Shown piece after piece: positions 9,267 to 41,057 of a stretch of 64,000 bases of DNA. Source of the stretch: Blastocystis hominis (Eukaryota; Sar; Bigyra; Opalinata; Blastocystidae). The stretch covers positions 1,005,153 to 1,069,152 of the forward strand of contig NW_013171815.1 of the NCBI RefSeq assembly GCF_000151665.1, written 5' to 3'. Each line of letters starts with the position of its first letter. The first letter of the stretch is position 1. Below the pieces are notes generated by a model that was not told the origin of the DNA, made no database searches, and saw nothing but the letters and a program-made list of their open reading frames with translations. A program made the translations under genes and the position numbers.

Positions 9267-11719
9267 TTACAACAGATCGGTCCATTTCGAAGAAACATCT
9301 AGTAATGACAAAACCAAGCTAGAACTACTCGAAATTGATTTCTTTTTAACAAATTGAAATGAATAAGGTAGTTTGACATTTTGAAGATTTGGAATATCTA
9401 AATACTATCAATATTCAATATTCAGAAATACTTGCCAATGTCACCCAACGAGGATACTTGAAACTATATTGTACAGAAGTTATTGATGTTAGATTTGGAA
9501 GATCTACAAAGTAAATCATAACCAATCAGTTTATTATTACTTCGAAGTGTCAATGTATTTAAATAATCATTTCTTCCAAAAAGTGCACCATAACCGAGTT
9601 GAATGGATTGTAATGATGGAAGATCTACATCAATCATTTCATTCTTATTCATTCAATACTTTCCATTATTGTTGTTAAGGATCTATAGAATGCACGATCA
9701 CCTAATGTAATGGATTGTAGATTTGGAAGATCTATGCATCATTCAAACATTCAATATCATATCAATACCTCGAACCACAAATGAACTACAATAGAAATTG
9801 TATGAATCACTCCAAGTTATGCCAATTTGAATGGATTGTAATTGTGGAAGATTCTTCAATTCAAAGTCGCCAGCAAAATCACTGAAACTCCATTCACCAA
9901 TTTGAATCGATTCCAATGATTCACAATTCAATATGTGGAATGATTTCGATTCATCATTTCCCCAACTATACCTTTTCTGAGTAAATGAATTGTTTCCGAT
10001 TTTGATAGTTTTCAATCGATTCAATCCATCAATTTTGAATGTTTTCACTGAGCCAAAACAATCATTGTTAATGTTTATTCTTTTCAGAAACAGGTTATTG
10101 GATAATGCCAATACTGGGATATGATTGTAGTGAAACGATTCAATTTCCAGCGACGTTTGAAAAAAGCCAATATATATTGAAGAATAGCAAAAAATCACAT
10201 TGATAACCATTATTATGATATTAATTATTAACAAAAATGGTAAAGAACGATATATAACATAAAAGGTGAAATGAATCATTGATTTTATAGATATGTCATA
10301 TGCATTAAACATGAGAGTTATACTTCTTACTAATCTAAGACATGTATAGAAATCAATATTTCTTAAATAGAAGCGACAGAAATCCCTTCGGTTTTGGCTT
10401 AACTCATAAATAACCGTCAATAAAATAAGCACACACATTGGAATAAATAAGATCCTCAACACCTTTAATAGTATTATGGCAATGAATATAATACTGAGTA
10501 ATACCCACAACAAGTGGATACTATAATATCCTTCGGTCCATTTACTCTTTCCTGTTGGTTGCCCATTCATATATACAATTCCTAATCCGTGCCGTTTTCC
10601 ATTTTTATATTCTCCCTTAAAACTCCTCGTTATTCCATCTGAATTAAATTCTTCACCGCAGCCATTTCTTGGATAATTATGAATAAAGGAATCTAAATAC
10701 TCTCCCTGGTATACTTTTTGCTTGTTCTTGAATTCAATCATTTTGTCATTACTAAACTGTTTCCAAATATTGACTTCCTTGTTTTCTTTCCAAATACTTA
10801 TTCGGGCTATTTTTCCATAATGATAAATATAACTAATCCCTTCATAATTTCCAAAATCGTCAATTTGACATATCCGAATCAAATTGCCACTTTCATCATA
10901 TTCTTTCCAATATCCTCCTCCCATTTCTGATAATGGCTCTCTATTTAATTTAACACCTTTCGAATAATAACCATCCGATATCAAATTATCGTATTCATCA
11001 TATTCCTTTCCTCTTCCTTCTTGATATCCATTCACAAAATAGCCTTCAAACCAGGTTTTACGATAATCATTATACAATTTGTAGTATCCATTATAGGCTA
11101 TTTCAGATCCATTATGCCATATACAGACTCGATCCAAATTGTGATCTTCATCATAACAATAACAAAGTCCTGCATTATTTCCTAAAACATCTTTTTGACA
11201 AACTCGAATCAATTGACCATTGTCATCGTATTGTTTCCAGTATCCCCTTCCCATTTCTCTTGACGGTTCCATATTTAATCTTACACCTTTCGAGTAATAT
11301 CCACAAAATACTAATTTTCCATTTTCATCATATTCCTTCCCTATTCCTTCTCGATATCCATTCACCATAAACCCTTCAAAAAACAAAAGCCCATCATCAT
11401 CATATAATATGCAGGGTCCGCAAGCAATTCCATCCATAAAATATAGGGCAGCTATACGTACATTACAATCAGAGAAAATAGCAGCTATTCCATTCATTTT
11501 GGAGTTCCTTATAGTCGTTGCAATACTGTAACCCTCATGAGGCTTCGCCACTTTAATCGCAACCAAATCTGCATTGGCTAACTCACACTTAACAGGAAAC
11601 TGCTCAGAGACATTATATTTCCAGCAATACCCTCTTTCCGTAATTTCCTTTTTGTCAACAATTGTCGAACTGAACTCGATACTTGACGCTGCATCATTTT
11701 TCGTAAACAGAGAATCCAT
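9267..11719 (-). CDS. MORN_2-repeat / multi-TM / BspA-like LRR protein
   Basis: Membrane protein of 759 residues in three parts. Residues ~60-400 are MORN_2/YwqK-like repeats (NGYREGIGKEYDENGKL, NGYQEGRGKEYDEYDNL, FKGEYKNGKRHGLGI). Next come two hydrophobic clusters (LLWVLLSIIFIAIILLKVL with LFIPMCVLILLTVIY; PFLLIINIIIMVINVIF). The C-terminal third is leucine-rich repeats (RLKTIKIGNNSF, LPQLQSIQIG). Five phase-1 introns (9732-9768, 9625-9659, 9504-9540, 9398-9431, 9299-9328) separate single LRR units at the C-terminus; all end TAG|AT. It ends with the cap NVSSKWTDLL. No signal peptide is seen, so the LRR tail probably lies across the membrane from the N-terminal MORN part. Function unknown; start chosen as the first ATG. 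Confidence 0.75.
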
Positions 11720-12295
11720 TCTATTTGAAAAAAACAATTTTCAATTGTAATATGGTTTTGTATTTATGGTAAAATGATATTTTGTAATATGTCAAAATGT
11801 AATTCCGAGGTATTACTTGTGTTTACGTTATTCTGAATAAGTTAATTGTAATTTATGCATACTACGGGATAATATAATCGATAATATGCTCCGAGTTCAA
11901 TCGAGATCAACATTTCACGGAACTCGTTGTTTGTTCGAATGTAGCAATCTATCTTGAGCCACCATTTTGAAAATAAACTGTGATAATTCAAGTTGAGATT
12001 TTGCCGATTCTTTATTGAAATGCCTTGTAATTTACATTATTATAATTAGGAACTCAATTGTATTTCAGAAATTGGAACAGCCTACAGCTCACCAACACTA
12101 TCAAAAATACTATGGAGTGCTACTGAATACTTAATATTACAAGAAAAATGTATCAACCCATTCAATATCTGTTCCTAGTATTTGTCAATCACAACTCTCA
12201 CTCTATGCATATCGATTCCGTATGCAGTGATCATTATAAAGCAACCCTATTTAAAATGGCTTTAATATTGAGCTTATTCATAATCTATTTTTGGA
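11720..12295. other. AT-rich intergenic region between divergent genes
   Basis: Holds the promoters of the MORN/LRR gene (minus) and TMEM208 (plus). No coding signal or recognisable element was seen. Confidence 0.5.
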
Positions 12296-12923
12296 ATGGT
12301 ATTCTTCGCGTTCTACAATTCTAATCTTGTAGGCAAACCAGGCTACAAAGAAGAGAGAAAAGGAAAACGCAGGAATCGTTCGCTATGTGCAAATCTTTCT
12401 CATCGCTATTAACGTACAAATTTTTATTTGCTCTCACTTCAGCTGTGGTTCTTCATCTATAACATAGTGTTTTTAAGGGGTAAATATTTGTCCTTTGGAA
12501 CTCTCTTTCTTTATGCTATTCATGTGTCGGTACAGGGAATTTGTTACTACATGATCATGGAAAATTGCAAGACAATGGTTTTCACTGAAGCAATTGAAGG
12601 GTTGTTTTTTCACTCCTATTTCTACTATGCAGATACTTCGGGGATATGTTCATTATATCATGCGTTATCTCCTTCTTCATAGCCTACTCCAGAAAGTGGA
12701 TGTGGGTTTACATATTTGTATATTTACGGACGGTCTTTGAATTAGATTCCCATCTACTTCGGCTACTTAGGAATTCGTTTGCTGCTCAACTGGGTGTTTA
12801 CTCCTGACGAATCTCCGGAAGTTTGTGATTTCAGACGGTCTAAATATGTAGAAACTAGAGGAGATGAAGAGCAACCGTCAGAAGAAGAGAGAGGCTAAGA
12901 TGGCAAAACAGAAGGCAAATTGA
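12296..12923 (+). CDS. TMEM208: TMEM208 / SND2-like ER targeting membrane protein
   Basis: SND2/TMEM208 takes part in the SRP-independent route of protein delivery to the ER. Five introns (12299-12332, 12414-12442, 12601-12632, 12718-12745, 12821-12851) give 157 residues. The features are MANQATKKREKEN at the start, hydrophobic segments (VQIFLIAINLWFFIYNIVF, FIISCVISFFIAY, IPIYFGYLGIRLLL) and a basic tail KSNRQKKREAKMAKQKAN like other family members. The first intron begins directly after the ATG, so exon 1 codes only for Met. The last intron restores the family-typical basic tail instead of an acidic read-through. The stop is followed after 2 nt by TGTTTGTT. Confidence 0.85.
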
Positions 12924-12925
12924 GT

Positions 12926-12933
12926 TGTTTGTT
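12926..12933 (+). terminator. TGTTTGTT poly(A)-associated motif
   Basis: Begins 3 nt after the TMEM208 TGA, so the 3'UTR must be almost absent; the tRNA gene starts 27 nt further on. Confidence 0.65.
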
Positions 12934-12959
12934 AGTGAGAGTTTTGATTGTTGATTAGA

Positions 12960-13042
12960 GCACGTTTGCCCGAGTGGTCTAAGGGGGTGGATTCAAGTCC
13001 CACTGTACGGAGTACTCGTGGGTTCAAATCCCACAGCGTGCA
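12960..13042 (+). tRNA. trnL-CAA: tRNA-Leu (anticodon CAA)
   Basis: An 83-nt cloverleaf with a long variable arm. The acceptor stem GCACGTT pairs with AGCGTGC (one G-U), with discriminator A. The D arm is CCCGAGTGGTCTAAGGGG. The anticodon loop TTCAAGT reads CAA with one A-C mismatch closing the stem. The variable arm is TGTACGGAGTAC, and the T arm GTGGGTTCAAATCCCAC pairs perfectly. Long variable arm plus A73 fit Leu. There is no intron, although tRNA-Leu(CAA) carries one in many eukaryotes. Confidence 0.93.
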
Positions 13043-13047
13043 TTTTT
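13043..13047 (+). terminator. RNA polymerase III T-run
   Basis: TTTTT directly after the tRNA discriminator base, followed by further CTTTTTC tracts. Confidence 0.75.
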
Positions 13048-13153
13048 CTTTTTCTTTCTTACTATTTTGGTTTTGGTTTTCCTCTCAAACAAACACGCCC
13101 ATCAACTTTGATTCCATATTTTTTCCACTAACGAGCGGTTCGCTTGCTACAAC

Positions 13154-13936
13154 TCATCCTTCTTCTACAAAAACTACATTGCAATGAGTGCGAAGAATGT
13201 CCTGAATGACCAACGATAAAGAAACGTGCTTTAGGTATTGCGAAGATGAACTCCTCAAAAACTTGCATATCGAAGATAAGTATTCCATTCGAGCTCCCGA
13301 TTCCCTGGTCATCACCTCGTCCAGGCAGTTTTTCACTTCTTGCAGAGAGAGTGGCTCAGACTCTTCTTGGAGCGAGACTGGACTGGATTCTTCTTGTTTC
13401 GACGGAAGAACACGGCGCAATTCAGTCATGTCGGATAGGACTAAATAAGTCATATTGGCACGGATGCGATCGGAAATAAAGAAGCACTCCGTGCTATTCG
13501 AATCCTGATATACTACGGGAGAATCTCCATATTCGGGAAGTTCGTTTTGGTAGGGAGCCGGAAGTGCTATGTTAAAGTATGCACAGTATTTGGGTAATAG
13601 GCGGGTGTCACAAGAACCTTTGACGTACAACACACCACGTACAATGTTTTTCTGTTGTGTTACATCATTCATGAGGAATACAAGGTAATCTGAATCATAT
13701 AATGTGGAAGGTTCCTCTTCGAAGACAGAGGGTTTGAGCTCGACAACATAGTCGGGCAACTCTTCATGTGGGGCTATATGCACCTTTACTTTGACTTCGA
13801 AAAAACGCTCGCAGAGAATACGGGTCTTTTTTCTTGGAATCGTTATCTGAAGGAGTTTCGGGAGAAGCAGATGCCAAACACTTTGACTCGGTACTACATC
13901 AATAATTCGCAAAAAACTTCAAACTACTTTACACAT
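13154..13936 (-). CDS. Uncharacterised protein
   Basis: Introns 13894-13924 (31) and 13847-13881 (35) give 238 residues starting MCKVYRVKITIPRKK. The middle is likely beta-rich (EVKVKVHIAP, DYVVELKPSV, NIVRGVLYVKGS) and the C-terminal third is helical and Ser/Glu-rich (SLQEESEPLSLQEVKNCL). No signal peptide or TM segment. I do not recognise the family. Splicing of the first two introns is inferred from frame and length only, since no conserved motif confirms it; the long last exon (13154-13846) is firmer. It lies directly downstream of the PAP2 gene on the same strand. Confidence 0.55.
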
Positions 13937-14024
13937 TCACCAAAAGATCTTCTCACAAGTTGATAGAATCCTCCCCGTGGTACTCGCCCTTCACCTTAGC
14001 CAACATAGGTCGAATCATACTTGC

Positions 14025-14032
14025 AACAAACA
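14025..14032 (-). terminator. TGTTTGTT poly(A)-associated motif
   Basis: 12 nt past the stop of the PAP2 gene. Confidence 0.6.
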
Positions 14033-14044
14033 TAAAAATTATGA

Positions 14045-15070
14045 TTACACGATTACAGACTCAGGCTTGGAAACTGGCGTGTAAACATTGATTAAACTCT
14101 CCGCAACATCATCATAAAACATACTACACAAAAACGAAGCGTTCTTTCCCTTTGATCGAGTGTCCATTATTCTCTTTGTTGTCGAAAAGCACGGATAAAA
14201 CACCAGAGAAACCAAAATAGAGGCCAGCGTTCCAAAAACAATGCCACCAATCACATCTTCCGGACGATGTCGATAATCAAACTACACATCACGGAGATTT
14301 TCAGTCCGCACGATGCGACTTCCGAAAATGAAACTGCACCAAACAACAAACGGCAGGAGAATGACCACTTTCAGAATCCGAGTGGAATACTGTTTCCATG
14401 CGAAATGACTGTCCACAAACCGGAAAAATAAAAGAGTGAGCGTCACGAATGCGTTGGCTGCAGTCGCAGAGTGACCCGAAGGAAAGGACCGAAAGGCGTT
14501 GAAAATGTCATGTTGCTACAGAGTAATTGTAGAATAGAGAAACACACTGTCCCATGGCACTTTGTTACATTTCCCAATACACCAAAGGTACCGAAAGTGC
14601 GAACTATCTCTCCGGAAGAGAGCACCGTCTCGACCTTTTCGTACTGGCATAACTCAAAGAAGCAAGGACGAGGTCTGCCGATGAAGTTCTTCAACGTGAC
14701 GATAAAAATCTCGCTGACTGCATAGGAACGGGAGGCAAGATAGAGGATATCATGAACCCACTAAAATCAAGACGAAAGAACTCACGTACGACGGAAGCAT
14801 CTTTCGGACGACACACTATGACAAACAAGCATAAAAGAATGGTGGGAACAACGTAACAATAAATAATCACGTATTTGTATCTATGCCATCAGTTCAATAT
14901 GACTATGCTCCATACGGCACTGTATCGTGAACAGAGTACGATAAAGCCAAATCCCCTTCAAAAAACTCGGTATACTTTGGAGGAATGTTTTCGATCCAAT
15001 AGGTTGATAATATGAGTATTAGGGTCAAAATCCACCCCGCAACCAACTGTCTGGAGATTTGGAGATTCAT
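14045..15070 (-). CDS. PAP2-family lipid phosphate phosphatase
   Basis: Integral membrane phosphatase acting on lipid phosphates such as phosphatidate. Introns 14881-14915 (35), 14761-14789 (29), 14516-14547 (32) and 14282-14311 (30) give 299 residues. All three catalytic motifs are seen: KNFIGRPRP (KxxxxxxRP), SFPSGHS (PSGH, on an exon started by the 32-nt intron) and SRIFDYRHRPEDV (SRxxxxxHxxxD, created by splicing the 30-nt intron). About six hydrophobic segments surround them (e.g. LVAGWILTLILILSTYW, KYVIIYCYVVPTILLCLFVIV, VVILLPFVVWCSFIF). The order and spacing match LPP-type enzymes. Confidence 0.9.
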
Positions 15071-15997
15071 ATAAACAAACAATGGGGAACACGTACGATT
15101 TTGCTAGGAATAACATCGGAATAGTACATTACAATAAAGAAGACTTCCATGTAGAGTATTACAATTGGTGAGAAACATCCATCATGTTGGAAGTTTTCAA
15201 GATTCTCCTTTTTCGATTAGAGCTAGGATTTGTTCAGCACGCAACTATGGTGTTTTCAACTATGATATCTTTTTATGTGTAAGAAGAAAACTGAATAATG
15301 TTTTCTATCTCATTTAGTTTTAAATTGCAGTGTGTTTCGATTATTTGCATTCAAATATTAAAATACTTGTGAATATAGGCTTGATGACAAGAACAATCTT
15401 ATGATCGTCTTTTCAGTGTGATATTTCAATTTCATATATAATAGCGAACGTTCCACCATAATTATAATTCAAATAGCAAGTTTCCCTGATTCGTGGAATT
15501 CATGTTTTTCGAGAATAATTCAAATAGCGCATATATAAGGTAATGATTTCTATGTAAAATTATCGGTCCCATGCTATATTATAGCACAGTAGAAAAGGAA
15601 ATCCAGAAGGAGAAACTCGAATTGTTCCATGATTATGATGCTAATTACTGTGGTGACTTTTGCAAAAATGAGTAACCCTAAAATACCAATATTGAGAGAA
15701 TATTGATTGTTATCACTATATCTGAAGATAAACAGGAAAGAGAATGTCAAATAGGCAGAGTGGAAAAAAACGAGCACATCGTGAAATGTCTTGAGTTGAT
15801 ATACCAGAAAATCAAACAGTCACAAAGACAAAAAAAGAAATAATCTCAAATGAATGAATGAACACGAGAAAATTGAAAAATGAAAAAATGTCCCAATTGA
15901 TTCCTATTGGCTGTAAGAAATTAGTTACCATTATTGATCAGCATTTGCATTTATATTTCCGACGGAAAAATTTTAACTATCGTGAAGGAGCAAATTA
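15071..15997. other. AT-rich spacer with weak ORFs
   Basis: Two possible but unsupported genes. A plus-strand 48-codon hydrophobic frame lies at 15184-15372 with a 39-nt GT-AG intron (15279-15317). A minus-strand 67-codon hydrophobic frame lies at 15574-15777. Neither matches a family I know. Confidence 0.3.
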
Positions 15998-16493
15998 ATG
16001 TCATTGATTAAGTGCGCCTATTGCGGGCGTGCATATCCATTTTATGCATTCTACGATAGTGGAACCTCTCAATACTATCCCGCTTGTTACCAGTGCAGAT
16101 CCTCTGCTTTTGCTAGTAGAATAGCGCGATTTCTCTGAAACATAGAACAAGAATCGGTGACATCGGTATCTATGTCAAGCAGCAGTAATAAAAGGCAAAA
16201 CGTTGGAGACAGTGTACCATCGACACGCAAGAAATTGGCAACTTCTCTTAGTTCAGATTCTGTTGTTACTCCTAAGGGAATTGGCTATCAACCGAATTCA
16301 GAGTATCCATCTGTGGTCCCACGATCTGTATGGATCGTTTCAAATGCCAAATCGTCAAAGAAACAAAAAGTGGAATATTTTGCAGCTACCCTTTTGTATC
16401 ATCGGAGTTATATTCCTATTCAGAGCCATCCAGGATCAGGAAACTCTGCTCGTGTATAACGCTCTCTTTATTAAAACAAACCACCACGACTAA
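15998..16493 (+). CDS. Small zinc-ribbon-like protein with C-terminal TM segment
   Basis: Introns 16116-16145 (30) and probably 16337-16370 (34) give 143 residues. The N-terminus MSLIKCAYCGRAYPFY...CYQC has two CxxC pairs spaced like a small zinc ribbon. A Ser/Thr/Lys-rich linker follows, and the spliced C-terminus contains one hydrophobic segment, LPFCIIGVIFLF. Without the second intron the frame ends as SGNSARV with no membrane segment. A cytosolic zinc module on a single tail anchor is the simplest reading. The family is not recognised. Its stop lies 9 bp from the end of the convergent gene at 16503. Confidence 0.5.
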
Positions 16494-16502
16494 AATGGAG
16501 TT

Positions 16503-21500: not shown

Positions 21501-22900
21501 TTCCGATATATGAAGAAGGGTAGAAGAAACGAATGAGTGAATGAGAAGGAAAATAAGTGGTTTTATTTGACTATTAAATAATAAAAATAATAGAGGACAG
21601 TAATGAATTCCGAAAAGTGATGCTCGAGAAAACAAATAGTGTGCTGATAAACACTGATCGTGTGATGAATCCACCAAATCTTTTTAAATTACTACTTAGA
21701 GATTTCGATCTGATAGGCAAGAATGTAAGTGTTTCTAATGACTGTCAGTATTTTGAATAGAGTAATGTAAACTGTGTGGTGATTGGCTAGTATTGTTGAC
21801 AATTGACGAAAGAAATATGATGGGGTTTTGCATAGTGTTGATAGCATCAAGAACAACTAGATATCATGTGTTCTTTATATCTTTGAATGCATTATTATGA
21901 ATGTATGATGATAGGAATATAGATAATATTATCTATGTTGAAGTTTACTCATAATGAGAGTATGAATCAAATACTATGTTCGTTAACAATTTGAAACATA
22001 AAATAGTAACTTGGAGTGAATAGTATTATTCAATAGATCCGACCAAGATATGGTAATTCAAATTCATCCATAATAAAATGGATATTCCAGATGACCCAAG
22101 TAATCAAAGTAAGGTATAACAATTCGATAAAAAGAGTAATACTACTACTACTACTACTACTGTTATTACTATTTTCCCTATAGTCTCTAATTGTATGATA
22201 CAGAATAAAAATAGAGTTGTCGACTTGACTATATTACATCATAATTTGCTTTTGTTGAGATGATTTGTTCATCTACTTGATTATCACTACATAAATTGTC
22301 CTAAATTATGAATCACTGGGATATCACCAAGGATATATAACCATTCAGTGTAATACTACCAGATATAGGAATCATTGTATCAAGAAATGAATATGTGAAT
22401 GTGAATATACCATCACACTACTTGTTTTATATCCTGTATCGTCTCCAATAATTCCTATGAGAGTACCAATGATTAGAAACAAATGAATTATTCAATGATG
22501 TGATGTAGTGAATTGATTTTGTGTGATGTATCCAGTAGGTCTAGAACTTGTGATTGTTGTACCTGATAAATTACTAGTAGTAATGATATGTGTAGTTCAG
22601 CTATTACATTAAAAGGATAATAAATACTAATTCTGTTATTATATACTATTACTGGATTATCTATATTGATAGATCAATCAAAATTGATCATACAATACAA
22701 TCATGTAAGGGATTCTAATGGATATTATCATCTTCATAAGAAAAGGATTTTAATGACTATAGTGCCTAAACAATATGTTTTTAATTTGAATGAACATGAC
22801 AATTTGTGAAATCGCACACTTATCATTCTTTTGCGGATAATCATGTTCCAGTCTTATTGAAAACAAACACTAAGTTCTATAGCAGATAACTGTTGCAATT
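21501..22900. other. AT-rich spacer
   Basis: About 1.4 kb with no supported gene. It contains a short (ACT)n run at about 22140-22160 and many stops in every frame. Confidence 0.55.
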
Positions 22901-23929
22901 CTAGAAGCACTTACATTCATGGAAGAGTGTCGCAAACATCAAAAGATAACCACAGACAACCGCGATTATACACAAAACAATAATCGAGTAAAATATGATG
23001 TCCACAGTTTTCCAAACATCTTTCCAATTATTAAAAGATGTAATAAGAAATGTAATTAATAATAATAAACCTATATTAATTCCCATTATCCACATCATTA
23101 TCTTACCCATAGTTTCCTTAAAACAATCATATGTACATTTACAATCCCTTTTATTATCTTCTTTTGACTCTATTGAAAGACTCCCAGTCTTAATTTTCTT
23201 TTTATAGATTGGAACATATTCAAAGTCTGACTCTTTTCTATATTTTCCACTGAATGTTTCTTCTCCGTTTTTAAACACTTTCATTTTATGACCATTGAAT
23301 TCCTTTAGTAACTCTGTTTCTTTACCATGTTCCCATCTGCTTATCTTACTAATTTCGCCATCATAATACAAATAACATATTCCATGGTTCAAGCCATTAT
23401 TATCTATTTGAAATAGTGAAACCATTTTGCCATTTTCATCTTTTTCATCCCAGTAGTTTGAACCATCCGATCTCAGCTTGATATTGGGTGCTCGACGACC
23501 ATTTCTATAAAATCCTTCATAAATTGTACTTCCATCTTTACTATATTCCACTCCTGGACCATTTCGATAACCTTCATGCAAAAATCCAGAGAAATAGATA
23601 TCTCCGGACCTATAATACATTCTACACATACCATTAGCAACACCTTCCCGATAAGTCAAACTTGCTACAAATCGATTATCATAATCATAAAGAAACGCCG
23701 TTCCATCCAATATTCCAATCTTTTGACTTGCTTTTAGGGTATAACCGTGATGAGGGCTACCGATTTGACAAATGGCCATATTCTCATTTATATCTAGATT
23801 AATAATTGGAAATTCGCTTGAAATGCAATTGTTCCATATATCAGTGCTTTCTTCATTGATATCAACAGTAACACTAATTATAGGTGTATTCTCCTCACTA
23901 ATAGGATTTGGTTTTTTATATAATTCCAT
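22901..23929 (-). CDS. MORN_2-repeat / TM protein, short paralogue without LRR tail
   Basis: 342 residues. The N-terminal part aligns by pattern with the paralogues at 9267 and 36187: HHGYTLKASQKIG, then MORN_2-like GFLHEGYRNGPGVEY, EGFYRNGRRAP, GLNHGICYLYYDGEISK. Two hydrophobic segments follow (MMWIMGINIGLLLLITFLI and IIFYSIIVLCIIAVVCGYLL), then a Cys-rich end HECKCF. The LRR module is absent and no LRR exon was found downstream. Start at ATG 23929 fits the paralogues better than upstream non-ATG codons. It may be a truncated copy or a deliberate membrane-anchored MORN variant. Confidence 0.7.
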   Translation of the reverse strand: MELYKKPNPISEENTPIISVTVDINEESTDIWNNCISSEFPIINLDINENMAICQIGSPHHGYTLKASQKIGILDGTAFLYDYDNRFVASLTYREGVANGMCRMYYRSGDIYFSGFLHEGYRNGPGVEYSKDGSTIYEGFYRNGRRAPNIKLRSDGSNYWDEKDENGKMVSLFQIDNNGLNHGICYLYYDGEISKISRWEHGKETELLKEFNGHKMKVFKNGEETFSGKYRKESDFEYVPIYKKKIKTGSLSIESKEDNKRDCKCTYDCFKETMGKIMMWIMGINIGLLLLITFLITSFNNWKDVWKTVDIIFYSIIVLCIIAVVCGYLLMFATLFHECKCF

Positions 23930-26653: not shown

Positions 26654-29591
26654 ATGAATTCGAAGAGTAGAGACTATAAATATTGGATTAAAAATAGACG
26701 GACTACAGGAACTCAAGGGAAGCGAATATCTTCTGGATGGCTACATAACACTTGGTGAGCCAAAGGAAATATCGATTGGAGGTTCGATCTATAGCCTCCA
26801 GAATTTTCAAGGCGAACATGAGGATGAGTACACGTTGAAGAAGGATAACACAGTTTGCCTTTTTCAGAATGGAATACTGAAAATGGTTTATGAAACAGAC
26901 AATAGTGGAGCTCAGACAGGTAGTTTTACCCAATTCACAAATGGTCGTGTATCCTTCGTGCAGTCGTTTGATGACATTCTGGATCAACACAGCTTCAATC
27001 GTATTGTTAATCATGTTCAAGGAGAACGGATGGAAATCTATTCTCAGGAGAGTGGAAAGCGACTTTATCATGGTGAGTTCAATGAAGATCGGGAACGAGA
27101 AGGTTGGGGAATTCAGTACGATGATAAGACGGGAGCTATATTGCTTGAGGGAATATGGAAGAAAAATAAACTGGTTGAAATAGTTCGGAAGATCGAAGGA
27201 ACTATTATGACAGAATTTAAACGAAATGGAGGCAATATTATAGCCTCCAATCGAATCCCCATTTATGTGGGCGAATTCATATATGATGAATCGAAGGAGT
27301 CGTTTATACGGAATGGTCGAGGATATTACATTGATGAAGAAACTCGGATAGCTTATCGAGAAGTGGAGTGGAAAGATGGAGTGGAAGTGGGTGGAAGAGA
27401 TCTGTATGATGGATGGTACACTTGCTCTGCTAAGCCTAAACCAAAACCCAAGTACGTTTGGAAACCTCAACCTGTTGCTAAACCTGTAACGATTCCAGCT
27501 GTCGAGCCAGTAACTGAACCTGCTGAAATTTCCACTTCGTTTGTTGAGCCTTCTCCTAAACATCAACATGGTCAGAAAACTGTTCCAAAATCGGAGCCAC
27601 TTTCGAAGCCTATTCCTAGACCTCCTAAACCCCACAGAAGTCTCGTCGAACCTCCTTCTGTACCTGATACAATTGTTGAACCTGCACCAAAATCGAAACC
27701 TTCGATATCGAAGGAAGACGAAGCTGGATATGAGAAATTGAAGAAATTGTGTATGCATATAACAGATCTGGTGGTTCCTTCGAACTATATTGTAAAAATA
27801 AGTGTTTTGAATTTGGGTATATTCGACTGGCTGGAATCAATCGAAATTGGGGATGAAAGTTTCTGTTCAGTGCAAACATTCCAAATCGATGGATTGAATC
27901 GATTGAAAACTATCAAAATCGGAAACAATTCATTTACTCAGTCTAAGAATGGTGCTAGAGAAGATAAATCGAAATCATTCCACATATTGAATTGTGAATC
28001 ATTGGAATCCATTCAAATTGGTGATTATAGTTTCAGTGATTTTGGAGGAGACTTTGAATTGAAGAATCTACCACAATTACAATCCATTCAAATTGGTTCA
28101 ATTGAAAGAGATTATTCATACAATTTCTATTACAGTTCATTTGTGATTCGAGGTATTGATATGATATTGAATATTTGAATGATGCATAGATCTTCCAAAT
28201 CTACAATCCCTTACATTAGGTAATGATGCATTTTATAAGTCCTTGACAACAATAATTGAAAGTATTGAATGAGTTTGAATGAAATGATTGATGTAGATCT
28301 TCCATCATTACAATCCATTCAACTAGGTAATAGTGCACTTCAAGGAAAAACAGATGACGATTCATGTTCCTTGACAATGCGAAGTAATAATGAAATAATC
28401 TGAAATGATTTACTTTGTAGATCTTCCAAATCTAACATCCATCAATTCTATAAATAATAGTTTCGTATGGCCTTGTTCAGTTACATTGGAAAGTATTTCT
28501 TAGTATCGAATACTGAAAGTATTTAGATATTCCAAATCTTCAAACGGCCGCTATTTCAAATTCTTTGCTTAAAGTATTATATCCTATTGTTAATAGTAGG
28601 TTTATTAATTTCAGTATAGCATAGATGTGTCTGAAGTGCTTTTCCCTAAAGTGTATAACTATGATTTTGTTCAATCAATAAATACATCAGTCGCTTCTAT
28701 TACTCTTCCTAATTGGACTTGTAATGATATTGATTATACAACATTTGATTTCTCGCGATTTACACAAGTTGAATCAATCGAAATTGGGGATGATGGTTTC
28801 TGTTCAGTGCAAACATTCCAAATCGATGGATTGAATCGATTGAAAACTATCAAAATCGGAAACAATTCATTTACTCACAAAAAGAATTATTATGGAAATG
28901 ATGAATCGAAATCATTCCACATATTGAATTGTGAATCATTACAATCCATTCAAATTGGTGAATTCAGTTTCAGTGATTTTGGAGGAGACTTTGAATTGAA
29001 GAATCTACCACAATTACAATCCATTCAAATTGGTTCATACAGTTTCAATGGTAGTTCATTTGTGATTCGAGGTATTGATATGATATTGAATATTTGAATG
29101 ATGCATAGATCTTCCAAATCTACAATCCATTACATTAGGTGGTACTGCATTCCATGATTCCTTATCAACAATAATTGAAAGTATTGAATGAATTTGAATG
29201 AAATGATTGATGTAGATCTTCCATCATTACAATCCATTCAACTCGGTTATGCTGCACTTTATGGAAGAAGGGATGAATCTTGTTTTTTGAGAATGCGAAG
29301 TAATAATGAAATGATTGGTTTTGATTTGTTTTGTAGATCTTCCAAAACTAACATCAATTTTAAATGTATCTTCGGGAAGTTTCCAAAATATACATATGTT
29401 GATCCTTCAAAGTAGTTCTAAATCATTATTATTATGGCGTTTAGATATTCCAAATCTTGAAAATGTCAAGCTATCTGGTTCTTTTACGAATGTTAAATCG
29501 AAATCAATTTCAAGTATTGTTTGATTGTGTTATTTCATTTATAGATGTGTCTACCATTCTTATGAATTGTATCCAAACCAAAAGATATTAA
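26654..29591 (+). CDS. MORN_2-repeat / Pro-rich linker / duplicated LRR protein with one LRR per exon
   Basis: 853 residues after removing eleven introns: 26667-26697, 28153-28189, 28262-28296, 28384-28420, 28493-28526, 28596-28624, 29072-29108, 29181-29215, 29300-29336, 29412-29444, 29514-29544. All LRR-region introns are phase 1 and end TAG|AT. Layout: MNSK start exon, MORN_2-like repeats (LYHGEFNEDREREGWGIQY, GYYIDEETRIAYREVEW), a Pro/Lys-rich linker (about 27430-27715) where the paralogues have a membrane segment, then LRR block A and its duplicate block B (each VESIEIGD... RLKTIKIGNNSF ... LPQLQSIQIG followed by four single-LRR exons), ending with the cap NVSTILMN. No signal peptide or TM segment is seen, unlike the paralogues. 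Function unknown. Confidence 0.78.
27838..29336 (+). repeat. Direct duplication of an LRR exon block
   Basis: 27838-28420 and 28778-29336 are near-identical, introns included. The first intron of each block (28153-28189 and 29072-29108) is the same 37 nt. Differences cluster in short patches within the LRR loops (e.g. after NNSFT). Confidence 0.9.
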
Positions 29592-33663: not shown

Positions 33664-34086
33664 ATCTACAGGATGAGATTGCAAAAAAGACACAACTTGT
33701 TCCATCATCTTCATATACTCTATACAGGATTTGATTGCATGACTCTCCTTGTCCGTCGGTATTTCATCAGCGAACCACTCCGTTACCTCCTTAAACGACT
33801 TTTCAATTTCCAATCTCTCCTTTCCGTCTGGTGTAATCTTCTTTGACATTACAAAACCTATGTATCACAAACACCAAACTAATAAACCAGAAGTCTTCTC
33901 TGGAAGAGAAATGACCTCGCCCTTCAACAATCTACCTCGAAACGTTGCTTCTTTCCCTTCTCCGTCCCCTTTCACAACGAAATAGGTAGAGATCGGAGCG
34001 CCGCCTGTGTATTGAATTTCGCAGGGCAAATGCTGCACCGTAACGTCGCACAGCACGCGATCTCTTCCAACCTCCCCTTCACTCAT
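33622..34086 (-). CDS. RNASEH2C: RNase H2 subunit C
   Basis: Non-catalytic subunit of the heterotrimeric RNase H2 that removes ribonucleotides from DNA. One 30-nt intron (33858-33887) gives 144 residues. VQHLPCEIQYTGGAPIS and TFRGRLLKGE match the beta-barrel signature of human RNASEH2C (LHLLPCEVAVDGPAPVG, SFRGRCLRGE). Splicing yields EKTSGFVMSKKI, which fits the family (PGLVGYVMVTEE), whereas read-through ends after LLVWCL. The last 42 nt overlap the THUMP methyltransferase stop tail to tail. The true end may be earlier if polyadenylation supplies the stop. Confidence 0.85.
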
Positions 34087-34105
34087 CGCTCAAAAAAAAG
34101 TGTGA

Positions 34106-34113
34106 AACAAACA
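34106..34113 (-). terminator. TGTTTGTT poly(A)-associated motif
   Basis: 9 nt past the CCT1 stop and 19 nt upstream of the RNase H2C start codon. Confidence 0.65.
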
Positions 34114-34122
34114 CATCACCCT

Positions 34123-35977
34123 CTACATAATCCGCGGTGTCGAGTTTCCAGCATCCGGTTCTGGAGGCGGATTAATCTTAATCATATCGTCAATCCGCAA
34201 GATCGTAATGGCCGCCTCCGTCGCGAACTTGAGACATTTGACCTTGTTCATGGTGGGTTCGAGCACGCCTCGCTCGAAATTATTCGCCACCGCTCCCTCC
34301 ACCAAATCCAACCCAGCGAACCGGTTCTCGGGATGTTCCTTCCACCCCGCGTGGCGCGCACACAGCTGCGCGATCAGCTCCGTCGCGTCCTTCGCCGCGT
34401 TCACCGCCAGCGTCTTGGGGATGACCAGCAGCGCCTTGCCGAACGCCTCGACGGCGAGCTGCTCGTGCGTGGAGAGCGACAACGCGAAGTCGCTCAGATG
34501 CGTGTACAGCGCCGTCTCCACGGCTCCGCCGCCCACCACCAGCGACTTGCTCTCCATCACGCGCTGCTCCACGCAGAGCGCGTCGTGGAAGGACCGCTCC
34601 ATCTCGCCGAGCATCATGTCGTTGGCTCCGCGCAGCACCACCGACAGAGACGCGTCGTTCGACGTCGCCAGCCCGCGGAAAAACACGAAGTCGTCTGCAT
34701 GTCACGCCTCCTCCGTCGCTACAGTCGCCCAGACGCTTCTCCTCGACGACCTGGCAATGGCCGACCGCGGACGCGTCGACGCCCTCCTCGCCGTCGATCG
34801 TGCTCATCGACTAGTCGTCATTTCCCCGCGGAACGCCCACCACGACCACCTGGCCGCCCACCGCCTTCGCCACGCGCACCATATCGTCGTTGCTGACGCG
34901 ACGGATTCCGATGCACCCGCGCTCCACGAGGTATTTCAGACAGAGATCGTCGATGGTGTGTCCGCAGACGATCACGTTCGCGCCCGTGCTGAGCAGCACC
35001 TCCACTTTCCGGCGCGTGATCTCCATTTCCTCGCGCTTGATCCGCTCCAGCGCCTCCGAGTCCGACGTCTTCACCTCCACGCCCATCTGCAGCTTGTGGC
35101 GCTGCAGCGGGAAGTCGATCACCAGCACGTGCGCGTTCTCCACACGCAGAGGCATTTGCTGCGACGCGCGGCTCCCGGACAGAACGATCCCGTCCACTAA
35201 CTCGCTCTGCAGCGCGCTCTGGCCGTGGGCCTTCACGATCCCGATGTTCTCGATCGGGTATTTGTGCTTCCCGTCGCTGGAAATGAGGGAAACGGGGAAA
35301 CGTTACTCAGTCTCGGTGCGAACTGCCTTGACGGCGTCAACGGCCATTTGGGAGAACTTCTCGGTCTCCGCTCCGAGGATCTTGGAGCTGAGGGTGGTCT
35401 AGACTAGACTCGAGGGGTTGGAAGCTACCTTCGCTACGTTGAACAGAATCGCATCGGTAATCTGGTCACCCGAAATGAGAAGGTTTTCTCGGATGAAACG
35501 GATACACTCCTTGAGGGCGAGACGGTAGCCACTCATAATCAGCGTTGGATGCACGGCAAGTCGAATCAACTCCAAACCGTTCTAGGAGGAATGCTTCCTG
35601 CTGAAAAACTTACTTTCAGAAGCTCAGCAGCAAAAATAACCACACTCGTAGTTCCATCTCCCACCTCCTTATCTTGAAGGTCGGCAAGTTGAACAAGGAC
35701 CTTGGCAGCCGGGTGTTCCACCTCCAGTTTCTGAAGAATGGTAGCACCGTCATTTGTAATTGTCACGTCACCCACCTTGTCCACCTAGGCATAAATCGCA
35801 AAAGGCTGCTCTCACCAGCATCTTGTCGAGACCAACGGGTCCAAGAGAACTCTTTACAATATTTGCCACCGCCATACAGGCCATTGCTAGAGAATAACAG
35901 TCCACTTCACAAACCATACTATTTTGCGTTCTCACGTCGTTTCCACTTGTTCTTTCACCGTCAAGAGTTAAAGACAT
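34123..35977 (-). CDS. CCT1: Chaperonin CCT/TRiC subunit alpha
   Basis: ATP-driven cytosolic chaperonin subunit that folds actin, tubulin and others. Introns 35785-35815, 35583-35614, 35399-35428, 35277-35306, 34811-34840 and 34695-34722, plus a probable 33-nt one at 35887-35919, give 546 residues (human 556). Signatures: [55 protein letters not shown], and the alpha-specific [20 protein letters not shown] near the C-terminus. The 35887-35919 intron removes an insertion not seen in other CCT1 proteins. High GC and strong codon bias indicate high expression. Confidence 0.95.
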
Positions 35978-36186
35978 GATATTTGATATATTCTATAAAA
36001 GAAAACGAGTTTTCCAAATTTTGGCACGTTTTTTCAGAACATTCTAGTTTCATTTTTCCTTTTGATTTAAGCGCATTGGTGTATGAATGCATGATGCACA
36101 AGACGACAGTAACTATTTCTGGAGATTCCAGCACATACAGTTCCTCTTCAGTGTAGAACAAACACATAGGAAAATTGGATGTCACA

Positions 36187-39100
36187 CTATAAACGACTAA
36201 GATACGACAAAAGTAAGGGTGAAATATCTATTCATCAGCGGTATCCATTGTTCCTACTTTCAGTCTCCACACTTTCTCTGTTTGAGAAAGCACTTGGTAG
36301 AGACACCTTTGTTAAGTTGGGGATATCTATCCATCAATTCCCAGTACTTCACCTACTCATCAACACAATGTGTTGCTGATTCATAAAACTATAGCCCGAA
36401 GATGTCAACGTCTTCAAAGATGGGAGATCTCTCAAGACCAAACTGCTCTCCGACGCATCTCCCATACAGGATTTTAATCCAAGAGAAATGGAATCGAGGG
36501 CCGCCAAATCTATTGGTCAAAAAGAAAATTTCCAATTCTATTACTGTCAATTTCAACCGCGGGCGCATTCATAAAGGAATACATGCCCAAGTCGAGTGTG
36601 ATCAAATTAGGAAGGTCTAGAAATGAGGAGTGGGTTGTGTTGCTACCAAACAGTTTCAGAGGAGCGTTCATAAAGTTATTCGACTGCTGTGTAGTGTCTC
36701 CTATGTAGATTGACTGTAGAGATGGGAGAGAACTGATGTCAAATTGGAGGAAACCTACAAAACTATTCTTTCCTATAGTAATCGATTGGAGTGAAGAACA
36801 GTTAAAAACGGAAAAGGAAAGATCGTTAGGGATAACGCTCTGAGGTTGTGAATCCATCCCAAAAGACATGTCCCCAATGGCCAGTCTTTCCAAAGAAGGA
36901 ATTGCCCCAACCTCAAAATAAGTAACATTCTGGAAATTATTTGCATCAATTCGAATCAGTCTCAATTGAGAGTGATCCGTAACGATGAACTCATTTGATC
37001 CATAACTAGTACAACAATTCGGTTTGGCTATTAAAAATAAGGTTCGAGGACTTAAATTGAGCAGATCATCCACAGTCTTGATCCTCACTGTACGGAAAAA
37101 GAAGACATCAACAAGAAATCCAATACAAGCACATATCGCTAGTATCAAAATCAAGAGGCAAAAAAGGAAACAAATAATGTTGTGGTTATGATAATAGTAT
37201 CGAATCCTCTTTGTTTCCCCTTTTTTCTTTATTAAACAAGACCCATGAAGCATGCCATTCTTGTAGTGACCCTCGGAATATACATATCCATTTACAAAAA
37301 TCCTTCCCTTCCCATGGAACTTATCATTGGCAAAGTCACCCTTGTAAAGTAAATCCTTATTTCCATCAACATAATACTCCGTTCCCTGACCCGATCGTCC
37401 ATATCCTTTGGTAGGGTCGTTTTCAAACCCTCCTTCATAAATAACATTTCCATTATCATCGTACACCGTCATCTTATCTTGTAAAAACGCTCGCCGTGTA
37501 ATAATATCCTTACCATCACGAAATTCACGAATAGATTGAATAACATCTTCTTCTTCTTCTCCGTTTACTTTCTTCCTATAATACAAATAACAAAGGCCAT
37601 GTCGCAAATGATCTCTATTCATTTGCGAATAAGACATTAGGTGATCATCCATATCTCTTTCTTCATAAAACCCAGGCATTAATGTACTCTGTGTGCAACG
37701 AGTAACTTTACATCCATTTTCTATATGACCAAAAGCAATTTCTTTACCTTTTTCAAACTCAATATAATCGCCATTGGTTCCTTCACGATAGTAATATTCA
37801 GTATAGGATCCTTTGTCAGAGCCTCTGTACTCTTTCAAAATAGTGCCTTCAATATCTCCTTCAGTAATTACGCGTCCTGACTCATCAAATAGTTTACCTT
37901 TGCCTGTTCGAGGATATCCTTGCTCCACATTATCTATGTAGCTTCCTTCATATCTCAAATACTTGTCTTCATCATATTCTTTCATTACATCTCCATTAAA
38001 TTCTTTACAAATTCGCTTCTCTACTCCATCTTCCCATATACTAGCTCTCTTTATTATACCTCTTTCAAAAATGTAACATAAATCATTGCGAAGACGAGTG
38101 TGACCAATTGTATTTAGTTGACTCATTGATATTATAGTACCTTCCATATCTGTTTCTTTATAATAACGACCGAAAGCTGCTACAAATCGATTTGCTTTAG
38201 CACCATTTATAACATAACCAAATGCGATTTCTTTACCTTTCTCAAATTCAGAATAATCGCCATTGGTTCCTTCACGATAGTAATATTCAGTATAGAATCC
38301 TTTGGAATATCCTTTGTATTTGTCTAAAATAGTGCCTTCAATATCTCCTTCAGTAATTACGCGTCCTGACTCATCAAATAGTTTACCTTTGCCTGTTCGA
38401 GGATATCCTTGCTCCACATTATCTATGTAACTTCCTTCATATCTCAAATACTTGTCTTCATCATATTCTTTCATTACATCTCCATTAAATTCTTTACAAA
38501 TTCGCTTCTCTACTCCATCTTCCCATATACTAGCTCTCTTTATTATACCTCTTTCAAAAATGTAACATAAATCATTGCGACAGACTGAAGTGTGACCAAT
38601 TGTATTTAGTTGACTCATTGATATTATAGTACCTTCCATATCTGTTTCTTTATAATAACGACCGAAAGCTGCTACAAATCGATTTGCTTTAGCACCATTT
38701 ATAACATAACCAAATGCGATTTCTTTACCTTTCTCAAATTCAGAATAATCGCCATTGGTTCCTTCACGATAGTAATATTCAGTATAGAATCCTTTGGAAT
38801 ATCCTTTGTATTTGTCTAAAATAGTGCCTTCAATATCTCCTTCAGTAATTACGCGTCCTGACTCATCAAATAGTTTACCTTTGCCTGTTCGAGGATATCC
38901 TTGCTCCACATTATCTATGTAACTTCCTTCATATCTCAAATACTTGTCTTCATCATATTCTTTCATTACATCTCCATTAAATTCTTTACAAATTCGCTTC
39001 TCTACTCCATCTTCCCATATACTAGCTCTCTTTATTATACCTTCTTCATAAACATAACATAAATCATTGCGAAGACGAGTGTGACCAATTGTATTTAGTT

Positions 39101-41057
39101 GACTCATCGATATTATAATACCTTCCATATCTGTTTCTTTATAATAACGACCGAAAGCTGCTACAAATCGATTTGCTTTAGCACCATTTATAACATAACC
39201 AAATGCGATTTCTTTACCTTTCTCAAATTCAGAATAATCGCCATTGGTTCCTTCACGATAGTAATACTGGTAATAGAATCCTTTGGAATATCCTTTGTAT
39301 TTGTCTAAAATAGTGCCTTCAATATCTCCTTCAGTAATTACGCGTCCTGACTCATCAAATAGTTTACCTTTGCCTGTTCGAGGATATCCTTGTTTGATAT
39401 CATCTATGTAGCTTCCTTCATATTTCAATCGTTCTTCGGTATCATATTCTTGCATAATAGTACCACTAAATTCTTTACAAATTCGCTTCTCTACTCCATC
39501 TTCCCATATACTAGCTCTCTTTATTATACCTCTTTCAAAAATGTAACATAAATCATTGCGAAGACGAGTGTGACCAATTGTATTTAGTTGACTCATTGAT
39601 ATTATAGTACCTTCCATATCTGTTTCTTTATAATAACGACCAAAAGCTGCTACAAATCGATTTGCTTTAGCACCATTTATAACATAACCAAATGCGATTT
39701 CTTTACCTTTCTCAAATTCAGAATAATCGCCATTGGTTCCTTCACGATAGTAATACTGGTAATAGAATCCTTTGGAATATCCTTTGTATTTGTCTAAAAT
39801 AGTGCCTTCAATATCTCCTTCAGTAATTACGCGCCCGACATCATCAAATAGTTTACCTTTGCCTGTTCGAGGATATCCTTGTTTGATATCATCTATGTAG
39901 CTTCCTTCATATCTCAAATACTTGTCTTCATCATATTCTTTCATTATATCTCCATTAAATTCTTTACAAATTCGCTTCTCTACTCCATCTTCCCATATAC
40001 TAGCTCTCTTTATTATACCTCTTTCAAAAATGTAACATAAATCATTGCGAAGACGAGTGTGACCAATTGTATTTAGTTGACTCATTGATATTATAGTACC
40101 TTCCATATCTGTTTCTTTATAATAACGACCAAAAGCTGCTACAAATCGATTTGCTTTAGCACCATTTATAACATAACCAAATGCGATTTCTTTACCCTTC
40201 TCGAATTCAGAATAATCGCCATTGGTTCCTTCACGATAGTAATACTGGTAATAGAATCCTTTGGAATATCCTTTGTATTTGTCTAAAATAGTGCCTTCAA
40301 TATCTCCTTCAGTAATTACGCGTCCTGACTCATCAAATAGTTTACCTTTGCCTGTTCGAGGATATCCTTGTTTGATATCATCTATGTAACTTCCTTCATA
40401 TCTCAAATACTTATCTTCATCATATTCTTTCATTATATCTCCATTAAACTCCTTCCAAATTCGTTTCTCTTCTCCATTCTCATAAATAGATGCCTGATAA
40501 ACAACATTATCGCGTAAAGCATAGCAGATTCCACCCTTCTTATATACTTCGTTTATTTGGGTAATAAATAGCAATTCTCCTGTATCTACGTCGGTTTCAT
40601 TATAAAATCCCTTCATTTTCCCCTTCAGTGGGCTTAATCGATGATAGCGCTTTCCATCCTTATAAAACCCAAAGAAACCTTCTTCTTTACCAGCAACACG
40701 GAATCCGTTTTCAATAAAACCATCAAAGAAAATATCTCCATTGGTAGTGAACAACTTACATGGACCATTTAGGTTTCCATTATCAAAGTGTAATTCTGCA
40801 AATACAATACCTTGTGGGTCCCTTAATAATCCATCTCCGTCTATTTTTTCTTCAGCTGACAGACCTGCTCTAAGCGTATAGCCAGTGAACGGTGGTTGTA
40901 GTGTAAACAGAGTACCTCCTCCTTCGATACAAGCTTCATGTGATTCTTCTCTGATATACTGTCCAATATCCCTCGTCCAGACCTCTTCATGATCAAGAAT
41001 AGCCTCTCTACGTGAGAAGAGATCTTCCAAACGCTGAATTGTACCTATTGTATTCAT
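36187..41057 (-). CDS. Giant MORN_2-repeat / TM / LRR protein with six 163-residue tandem repeats
   Basis: 1,591 residues after introns 36510-36544 (35), 36327-36356 (30) and 36228-36257 (30), all phase 1 with TAG|AT ends. N-terminal ~230 residues share the family leader (PPFTGYTLRAG) and MORN_2 repeats. Six copies of a 163-residue unit follow (each with KEFNGD, YLRYEGSYID, GYPRTGKGKLF, KGKEIAFGYV, RYYKETDMEG). Then canonical MORN units (YKGDFANDKFHGKGRIF, EGHYKNGMLHGSC), one membrane segment (IICFLFCLLILILAICACIGF) and an LRR tail (SLQSITIGKNSF, LPSLQSIYIG, DLPNLITLDLG) with the last repeats on separate exons and the cap NISPLLLSYL. Start is the ATG at 41057. No signal peptide; the LRR tail should sit opposite the repeats across the membrane. 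Function unknown. Confidence 0.8.
37540..40462 (-). repeat. Six tandem 489-bp coding repeats
   Basis: The same 17-nt anchor (ATTCGCTTCTCTACTCC on the plus strand) recurs at 38011, 38500, 38992, 39481 and 39970, and a diverged copy (ATTCGTTTCTCTTCTCC) at 40459. Spacing is 489 bp except one 492. Units are nearly identical, apart from short cassettes such as DDIKQGY versus DNVEQGY and YYQYYY versus YTEYYY that switch between copies. The outermost copies are most diverged. Confidence 0.95.

What the first reader, a model, noticed from the sequence alone, without database searches (positions are those of the whole stretch)
9267..41057. A lineage-specific MORN-TM-LRR gene family (four paralogues in 32 kb)
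Genes at 9267-11719(-), 22901-23929(-), 26654-29591(+) and 36187-41057(-) share one plan: a leader containing GYTL/GYSI, MORN_2/YwqK-like repeats, usually a membrane segment, then BspA-like LRRs. MORN repeats inside and LRRs outside, without a signal peptide, is an uncommon receptor-like combination. Copy variation (no LRR in one, no TM in another, a giant repeat array in a third) suggests rapid diversification, possibly for binding host or microbial surfaces. That is my inference from architecture alone.
Basis: partly seen in the sequence, partly recalled or inferred. Interest (0 to 1): 0.9.

Follow-up and report, generated by a model that had tools for sequence, protein, structure and literature searches.

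The report
Protist gene family sharing exchangeable repeats
The four genes are a small sample of a very large, apparently undescribed gene family in the gut protist Blastocystis, whose members carry different front parts but seem to draw one leucine-rich-repeat module, introns included, from a common pool; this would matter because it resembles how some organisms keep a varied set of binding proteins.

Summary
The four genes exist at the stated places and belong to one MORN-repeat family. Genes 1, 3 and 4 join MORN-type repeats and leucine-rich repeats (LRRs) in one spliced model; gene 2 has no LRR; gene 3's N-terminal half is only a remote relative. "Four paralogues" is a large understatement: I count at least 336 loci on 30 of 40 contigs, in at least three N-terminal classes. 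Membrane segments were seen mainly in one class, so "MORN inside, LRR outside" fits that class only.

The main finding is new. Genes 1 and 3 share no DNA except an LRR cassette, which is common property: a 32-base exon piece occurs 329 times and a 37-base intron 188 times, 84 exactly. Cassettes are about as alike between two N-terminal classes as within them, introns included, and near-identical strain versions of a gene differ most in the cassette. This points to exchange or gene conversion; the tree tests alone are not decisive. Some copies lie in about 11-kb dispersed repeats, and the published subtype-7 annotation avoided genes in repeats, a plausible reason the family was missed. Its function as a binding repertoire is inference.

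The parts
9267..11719 (-). Gene 1: MORN - three membrane helices - LRR; exons 11719-9769, 9731-9660, 9624-9541, 9503-9432, 9397-9267
   Evidence: spliced model; MORN_2 over cut-off; model
10535..11563 (-). Gene 1 MORN-type beta-hairpin domain (residues 53-395)
   Evidence: strands; and 116 matches include MORN1 and junctophilins
10181..10522 (-). Gene 1 membrane region (helices 400-513; hydropathy gives three segments)
9267..10153 (-). Gene 1 LRR cassette: end of exon 1 plus four short exons; internal exons 72, 84 and 72 nt
9732..9768 (-). 37-nt LRR intron; the pattern has 188 copies genome-wide at up to 3 mismatches
22901..23929 (-). Gene 2: leader + MORN-type domain + two membrane segments, no LRR
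22862..22869 (-). TGTTTGTT polyadenylation motif after gene 2
   Evidence: motif role in PMC5608401
26654..29591 (+). Gene 3: MORN-like domain, proline-rich linker, two LRR arrays, no membrane segment; 11 exons
26667..26697 (+). Gene 3 leader intron (31 nt), used as comparison for intron divergence
26745..27407 (+). Gene 3 N-terminal single-layer beta domain (residues 30-250 of the frame)
   Evidence: pLDDT mostly about 90
27765..28595 (+). Gene 3 LRR array 1
28625..29591 (+). Gene 3 LRR array 2 (second cassette with the same kind of introns)
36235..41057 (-). Gene 4: MORN with giant in-frame tandem array, one membrane segment, diverged LRR; end 36187 also possible
37728..40477 (-). 489-bp (163-codon) tandem array, 5.6 copies, 95% matches
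37122..37178 (-). Gene 4 membrane segment (residues 1294-1312)
36157..36164 (-). TGTTTGTT motif after gene 4

Best explanation
The four genes belong to a genome-wide Blastocystis family (at least 336 loci) built from two separable modules. The N-terminal module is a MORN-type single-layer beta-sheet of at least three classes: gene-1 type with membrane helices, gene-3 type without, and a third short type in which I saw none. The C-terminal module is a multi-exon LRR cassette: its first exon holds about three repeats, later repeats mostly start after a short intron, and the internal exons of the models are multiples of three. Shown: the cassette, with its introns and synonymous sites, is about equally similar within and between the two N-terminal classes compared, while the N-terminal halves are not; the simplest reading is that cassettes have been exchanged or converted among loci. 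Shown: variation inside the cassette is greatest in one loop, with a second variable stretch before the first intron. Inferred: the LRR is a binding surface whose scaffold is homogenised and whose loop is diversified, giving a repertoire; the MORN module holds it at a membrane, with the LRR facing out in most of the gene-1 class and cytosolic in the gene-3 class. Inferred and weakest: the ligands are bacterial or host surfaces.
For: Between gene-1 type (8) and gene-3 type (20) genes the N-part is 21% identical with pS 0.75, the cassette 79% with pS 0.285; within classes the cassette gives 80%/0.225 and 79%/0.326 (much the same with L024 added). First LRR intron: mean identity 0.904, median 0.946 over 140 between-class pairs, against a leader-intron mean of 0.82 within one class. 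blastn of gene 1 against gene 3 finds only the LRR part. 329 copies of a 32-nt exon piece and 188 of a 37-nt intron, controls 0. On the cassette tree the class label needs 6-7 changes, not 1, and no bootstrap tree of 200 groups a class. In 56 of 61 pairs with N-parts at least 90% identical the cassette is less alike: gene 1-P0003 97.4/90.0, gene 3-P0105 95.7/84.0, L054-P0131 99.3/74.4. Loop pN 0.39-0.40 and pS 0.55-0.59 against 0.03 and 0.12-0.15 in neighbouring scaffold. Gene-3-type N-part pN/pS 0.092/0.40 suggests constraint, not decay.
Against: With all 29 genes the class label is weakly clustered on the cassette tree (6 changes against a shuffled mean of 8.0; 36 of 500 shuffles as low); the sets without L024 showed none (292 and 239 of 500). 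The test that gene-3-type cassettes form one clade is not rejected at 0.05 (AU p 0.072), and the tree is poorly resolved. In the reverse control, of 19 pairs with cassettes at least 93% alike, 10 have N-parts at least 90% alike and 3 under 60%, so whole recent swaps are not frequent; short tracts fit better. pN/pS stays below 1 in the loop. The 61 pairs overlap and were chosen on N-part identity. Gene 4's LRR shares no DNA with the pool and gene 2 has none. Fifteen of 63 gene-1-type relatives show two membrane segments, which would put the LRR inside. Sequon density does not differ between the two sides (7.2 and 6.4 per 1000). No expression, localisation or binding data.
Confidence: 0.58

Rival explanations
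1. Passive dispersed repeats. The genes spread because they lie in large repeats that duplicate by an unknown route, and the copies have no shared repertoire function.
For: A 900-bp stretch upstream of the gene-3-type copy L056 occurs in at least 40 copies, itself included, the others at 94-97%; two units on different contigs have matching sharp edges about 11 kb apart; non-coding spacers are about 94-97% alike in six loci; most gene-3-type copies of one subgroup lack ATG at the old start.
Against: No terminal inverted or direct repeats found in the two units; the parts of the unit compared with the window (0.4 kb at the left, 6.5 kb at the right) match only its LRR pieces; gene-3-type N-parts show purifying selection. 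Other gene-1-type loci were not examined for such units.
Confidence: 0.25
2. No exchange: the LRR cassette is conserved in DNA by strong selection on protein, codons and splicing, or spread recently into older N-terminal genes once.
For: Short introns have constrained ends, and introns are more alike than synonymous sites in both modules; the most alike cassettes mostly sit with alike N-parts; weak clustering of classes on the cassette tree.
Against: Leader introns of the same genes diverge more; pS varies from about 0.12 to 0.59 along one exon; a supported gene-1/gene-3 sister pair, L015 and L049, 98/93; near-identical strain versions differ in the cassette.
Confidence: 0.17
3. Intracellular scaffold or tether, as in junctophilins: MORN sheets bind one membrane, the helices sit in another, and LRRs serve protein assembly in trafficking, not outside recognition.
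For: Structure matches include junctophilin-1 and -2; the gene-3 class has no membrane segment in 117 of 120; two metagenome relatives fuse the gene-3-type domain, an EH domain (E 3.8e-17 in P0146) and the LRR cassette, and EH domains are endocytic adaptor parts (recalled).
Against: The gene-1 class has an odd number of segments in 48 of 63 with positive charge before the last segment, placing LRRs on the far side; repertoire size and loop variability would be unusual for a tether.
Confidence: 0.25

Closest known systems
MORN1 and junctophilins (MORN-repeat proteins)
   Same: Single-layer beta-hairpin sheet; junctophilins also carry a membrane segment after the MORN part (recalled)
   Different: No LRR in those (recalled); here LRRs follow the membrane segment, and one class has no membrane segment
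BspA-like LRR surface proteins of Trichomonas and Entamoeba (recalled; related listings)
   Same: Large LRR families in gut or mucosal protists, proposed adhesins
   Different: Pfam LRR_5 barely matches here (1 of 50); the LRR is C-terminal behind a MORN module; short introns separate the later repeats
Lamprey variable lymphocyte receptors, and antigen families diversified by gene conversion (recalled)
   Same: LRR or antigen modules varied by copying from many donors; stable scaffold with variable parts
   Different: No evidence here of somatic or programmed assembly; the cassettes read sit in complete-looking genes
Bacterial YwqK/MORN_2 proteins
   Same: Same repeat type
   Different: Only generic repeat similarity (E 4.2e-4 for P0102)

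Membership tests
MORN-repeat proteins | MORN or MORN_2 repeat over Pfam's cut-off | tested here: met
   Gene 1 MORN_2 33.1 bits against 29.6; MORN_2 at E up to 0.01 in 25 of 46 aligned gene-1 relatives; genes 2-4 not over the cut-off
MORN-repeat proteins | Single-layer sheet of beta hairpins | tested here: met
   Gene 1 model residues 53-395; matches include MORN1, SET7/9 and junctophilin, beside Rhs and OspA sheets; gene 3 has a similar sheet but only weak matches
LRR proteins | Tandem LRR units with regularly spaced strands | tested here: met
BspA-like (LRR_5) | LRR_5 over the curated cut-off | tested here: inconclusive
   No LRR_5 row for the five window proteins; 1 of 50 gene-3 relatives at E 0.0013; not among the families listed for 46 gene-1 relatives
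Junctophilins | Membrane segment at the C-terminal end | tested here: not met
   LRRs follow the membrane segments in genes 1 and 4
Programmed antigen or receptor variation | Directed replacement of the expressed cassette within a lineage | not testable with these tools
   Only one genome and unlinked metagenome proteins; exchange is inferred from comparison

The most novel reading that the evidence does not exclude
Blastocystis keeps a genome-wide, actively diversifying repertoire of LRR binding modules: hundreds of genes with different heads share one pool of LRR exons, copied among loci by gene conversion through nearly identical short introns and frame-neutral exons, with a hypervariable loop as the binding part and dispersed repeats, including inverted LRR fragments, as donors. 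The repertoire stayed hidden because genome annotation treated it as repeats.
Probability: 0.3. Interest if true: 0.88.

Novelty: new variant of a known kind. Interest (0 to 1): 0.72.

Why it matters
PMC5608401 calls Blastocystis the most prevalent eukaryotic microbe of the human gut (abstract); how it meets bacteria and host surfaces is, as far as I recall, largely open. A family of at least 336 loci would be far larger than the largest families named in the subtype-7 genome paper (32 histone-fold and 20 ferredoxin genes; PMC3129679). Subtypes differ strongly in gene content (PMC5608401), and a fast-changing shared LRR pool offers a testable source of strain differences. It is also a clean natural case of exon cassettes shared by genes with different heads.

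Tried and rejected
Rejected: the four-gene set as a special local cluster. A 6109-aa frame was not real: the stretch is largely unreadable letters. Sequon density as a topology test gave no difference. Bacterial or viral origin: no relative by tblastn for the gene-3 profile in genome contigs or viral contigs; gene-1 or LRR profiles were not scanned there. EH fusion inside this genome: the strong EH matches lie in two separate five-copy genes (plus one broken copy and five weak matches), one of which I read, without MORN or LRR; the fusion was seen only in 2 of 120 listed metagenome proteins, so an assembly chimera is possible. Strain variation of gene 4's array: only one distant relative. Terminal repeats of the dispersed unit: none found. 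A profile search of solved-structure sequences gave only weak LRR matches. Row L024 had been left out without good reason; adding it leaves the identities unchanged but makes the class label weakly clustered on the tree, which I report. Rows dropped otherwise: L001, L032 and L033 as duplicates; L020 (no intron found; long branch); one cassette with a stop, short ones and identical ones. Literature: no paper holds Blastocystis with MORN and leucine-rich repeat or with MORN repeat; Blastocystis with LRR gave 11 papers and with BspA 9 (8 listed), none on Blastocystis genes judging by titles and abstract starts; searches added nothing on this family beyond the two genome papers. Those two, PMC3129679 and PMC5608401, were seen as outline, abstract, named sections and passages, not whole; all others only as search listings.
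Full report
WHAT GENOME THIS IS. The window is C1:1005153-1069152 of an 18.7-Mb, 40-contig genome. TGTTTGTT occurs 23 times in 64 kb against 2.5 expected, one per 2,783 bases; PMC5608401 gives one per 2,782-2,792 for Blastocystis subtype 7 and links the motif to polyadenylation (section read). Genome size (18.8 Mb) and intron length (about 31-32 nt) also agree with the subtype-7 paper PMC3129679. I take it as Blastocystis, probably subtype 7; no named record was compared.

FAMILY SIZE. Own-genome searches with short queries were capped at 150 scored matches: LRR cassette 150 of 721 candidates, all matching at 82% identity or more; gene-1 leader 150 of 409; gene-3 N-domain 150 of 173; third-class N-domain 150 of 317, all at 82% or more. 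I merged 658 start positions: all 150 rows, 107 of 150, and chosen rows (18; 30; 30; 23); one search was not merged. This gives 336 loci at 4-kb spacing (363 at 2.5 kb, 324 at 6 kb) on 30 of 40 contigs. It is a lower bound, and a locus may hold two genes. In about 292 tiles of 64 kb, 18 hold four or more loci, so the window is ordinary in this respect. In public protein sets gene 1 has 102 matches (74 at E 2.6e-34 or better, then MORN proteins at 1.2e-13 and worse), and gene 3 has 959, of which 120 were listed.

CLASSES. Gene-1 type: of 63 proteins with a membrane segment before the LRR, 31 have three, 17 one and 15 two. In the 48 with an odd number, K+R in the 15 residues before the last segment averages 3.04 and after it 0.73, which places MORN inside and LRR outside. 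The 15 with two segments would put the LRR back inside, unless my simple hydropathy rule missed a segment. Gene-3 type: 117 of 120 have no segment; the other three have one marginal segment near the C-terminal end. Third type (L063, one member read): MORN-type repeats directly followed by the LRR cassette, no membrane segment seen by eye. Other partners of MORN-type N-domains in relatives: 14 or 12 membrane segments without LRR (P0024, P0062), an Hsp70 domain by precomputed Pfam (P0225), and EH domains between the gene-3-type domain and the LRR (P0146, P0158).

A SHARED LRR CASSETTE. Gene 1 and gene 3 align in DNA only over the LRR part, at 85% over 695 and 82% over 780 columns to the two gene-3 arrays; four other pairs tested (1-2, 1-4, 3-4, 2-4) share nothing. 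The first cassette exon holds about three repeats; later repeats mostly begin after an intron of 29-37 nt, and the internal exons of the gene-1 and gene-3 models are all multiples of three, so units can be added or lost without shifting the frame. A 32-nt exon piece occurs 329 times at up to 3 mismatches (the 100 listed are exact), reversed control 0; the first LRR intron (37 nt) occurs 188 times, 84 exact on 23 contigs, control 0. In 28 genes (8 gene-1 type, 20 gene-3 type) N-part identity between classes is 21% with pS 0.75 (within classes 34% and 83%), while the cassette is 79% with pS 0.285, as within classes; with L024 added the figures are 22%, 0.74, 79% and 0.29. LRR intron identity between classes has mean 0.904 (140 pairs), against a mean of 0.82 for the leader intron within the gene-3 class; gene 3's own leader intron is 0.63-0.81 like its paralogues while its LRR intron is 0.78-1.0 like theirs. 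A higher intron figure used a biased filter and is not relied on.

TREES. On the cassette tree of 28 genes the class label needs 7 changes, shuffled mean 7.2 (292 of 500 as low); without L020 6 against 6.4 (239 of 500); with all 29 genes 6 against 8.0 (36 of 500). So classes are not clades on this tree, but a weak association is possible. The one-clade test gives p 0.072, which does not reject, and few branches are supported. A gene-1/gene-3 sister pair, L015 and L049, is supported (98/93). The trees alone do not decide the case; the DNA identities carry it.

SHORT-TERM BEHAVIOUR. Among 29 own-genome and 148 metagenome proteins (own-own pairs left out), 61 pairs have N-parts at least 90% identical over at least 150 aa; in 56 the cassette is less alike (medians 0.933 and 0.859). 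Gene 1 and its near version P0003 are 97.4% in the N-part and 90.0% in the cassette; gene 3 and P0105 are 95.7% and 84.0%. The reverse choice (cassettes at least 93% alike, 19 pairs, own-own included) gives N-parts at least 90% alike in 10, 60-90% in 6 and under 60% in 3. So far apart, cassettes are more alike than heads; close together, cassettes differ more. That crossing is what exchange in short tracts predicts; frequent whole swaps are not shown.

WHERE IT VARIES. In 43 own-genome cassettes the stretch after the first repeat has entropies of about 2-3 bits at several places, pN 0.39-0.40 and pS 0.55-0.59, next to scaffold with pN 0.03 and pS 0.12-0.15; a second variable stretch (pN 0.25, pS 0.34) lies before the first intron. 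The first 11 codons were used to find the cassettes and are biased low; the loop and the later scaffold are not. pN/pS is about 0.7 in the loop, so there is no direct proof of positive selection.

DISPERSED REPEATS. Some gene-3-type loci lie in long repeats. Among six loci (L056-L058, L060-L062) the pairs tested are 94-96% identical over 3.4-3.8 kb, including 1.5 kb of upstream DNA; a 900-base upstream piece has at least 40 copies, itself included, the others at 94-97% (40 scored of 65). Two units, on C37 and C3, match from a sharp left edge about 1.7 kb before the gene-3-type domain to a sharp right edge, about 11 kb in all, without terminal repeats; the middle of the C3 unit was seen only as search hits. 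Inside are a short gene-3-type frame, a conserved spacer, a third-class MORN-LRR gene and, further right, an inverted piece of LRR sequence. A frame with an integrase core (rve, E 1.7e-11) lies beyond the right edge on C37, and a similar frame, by reading, lies left of the unit on C3 (no Pfam match). Whether it moves the units is unknown.

WHY IT MAY HAVE BEEN MISSED. [quoted passage not shown] It names families of up to 32 genes. The words leucine and MORN are absent from its main text, and leucine-rich and MORN from that of PMC5608401. That the present loci are in those repeats is inference.

MECHANISM AND CONFIDENCE. Shared cassette pool with exchange or conversion: about 0.75 (lowered from 0.8). 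LRR as binding module of a diversified repertoire: about 0.4. Surface display for most of the gene-1 class: about 0.6. Target bacterial or host surfaces: about 0.25; [quoted passage not shown] The number 0.58 given for the best explanation is for the two-module picture as a whole (lowered from 0.6 for the same reason).

Noticed in passing
L074:4119-5123 (+) and L071:1-753 (+): Integrase-core (rve) frame within about 2 kb of the right edge of one dispersed unit (Pfam E 1.7e-11); a similar frame, by reading, near the other unit (no Pfam match).
   Followed up: partly
own genome C2:871561-874176 and C38:306370-308589: Two genes each with five nearly identical EH domains (96-98% to the query); the C2 gene reads as a Pan1/Eps15-like endocytic adaptor (name recalled) with proline/glutamine-rich linkers.
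   Followed up: partly
L034, L037, L038, L040-L045, L047-L052, L056-L058, L060-L062 leader: These gene-3-type copies have ACG or another codon where gene 3 has its ATG; an in-frame ATG lies just downstream of the old leader intron.
   Followed up: partly
P0225: MORN-type N-domain (27% to gene 4) with an Hsp70 domain by precomputed Pfam in a metagenome protein.
   Followed up: no
P0024, P0062: MORN-type N-domain followed by 14 or 12 predicted membrane segments instead of LRR.
   Followed up: no
L075:2919-6998 (-): 1360-aa frame with putative Ig (He_PIG) repeats beside one dispersed unit; the subtype-7 paper reports 26 proteins with a domain often associated with Ig domains.
   Followed up: no
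L070:4899-5017 (+): 5S rRNA gene just left of the unit on C37.
   Followed up: no
window 12960-13042 (+): tRNA-Leu (CAA).
   Followed up: no
window 43291-44838 (+) and 61926-63431 (+): Carboxyl transferase (E 2.8e-195) and Vps39-like (E 4.2e-10) frames among the neighbouring genes.
   Followed up: no
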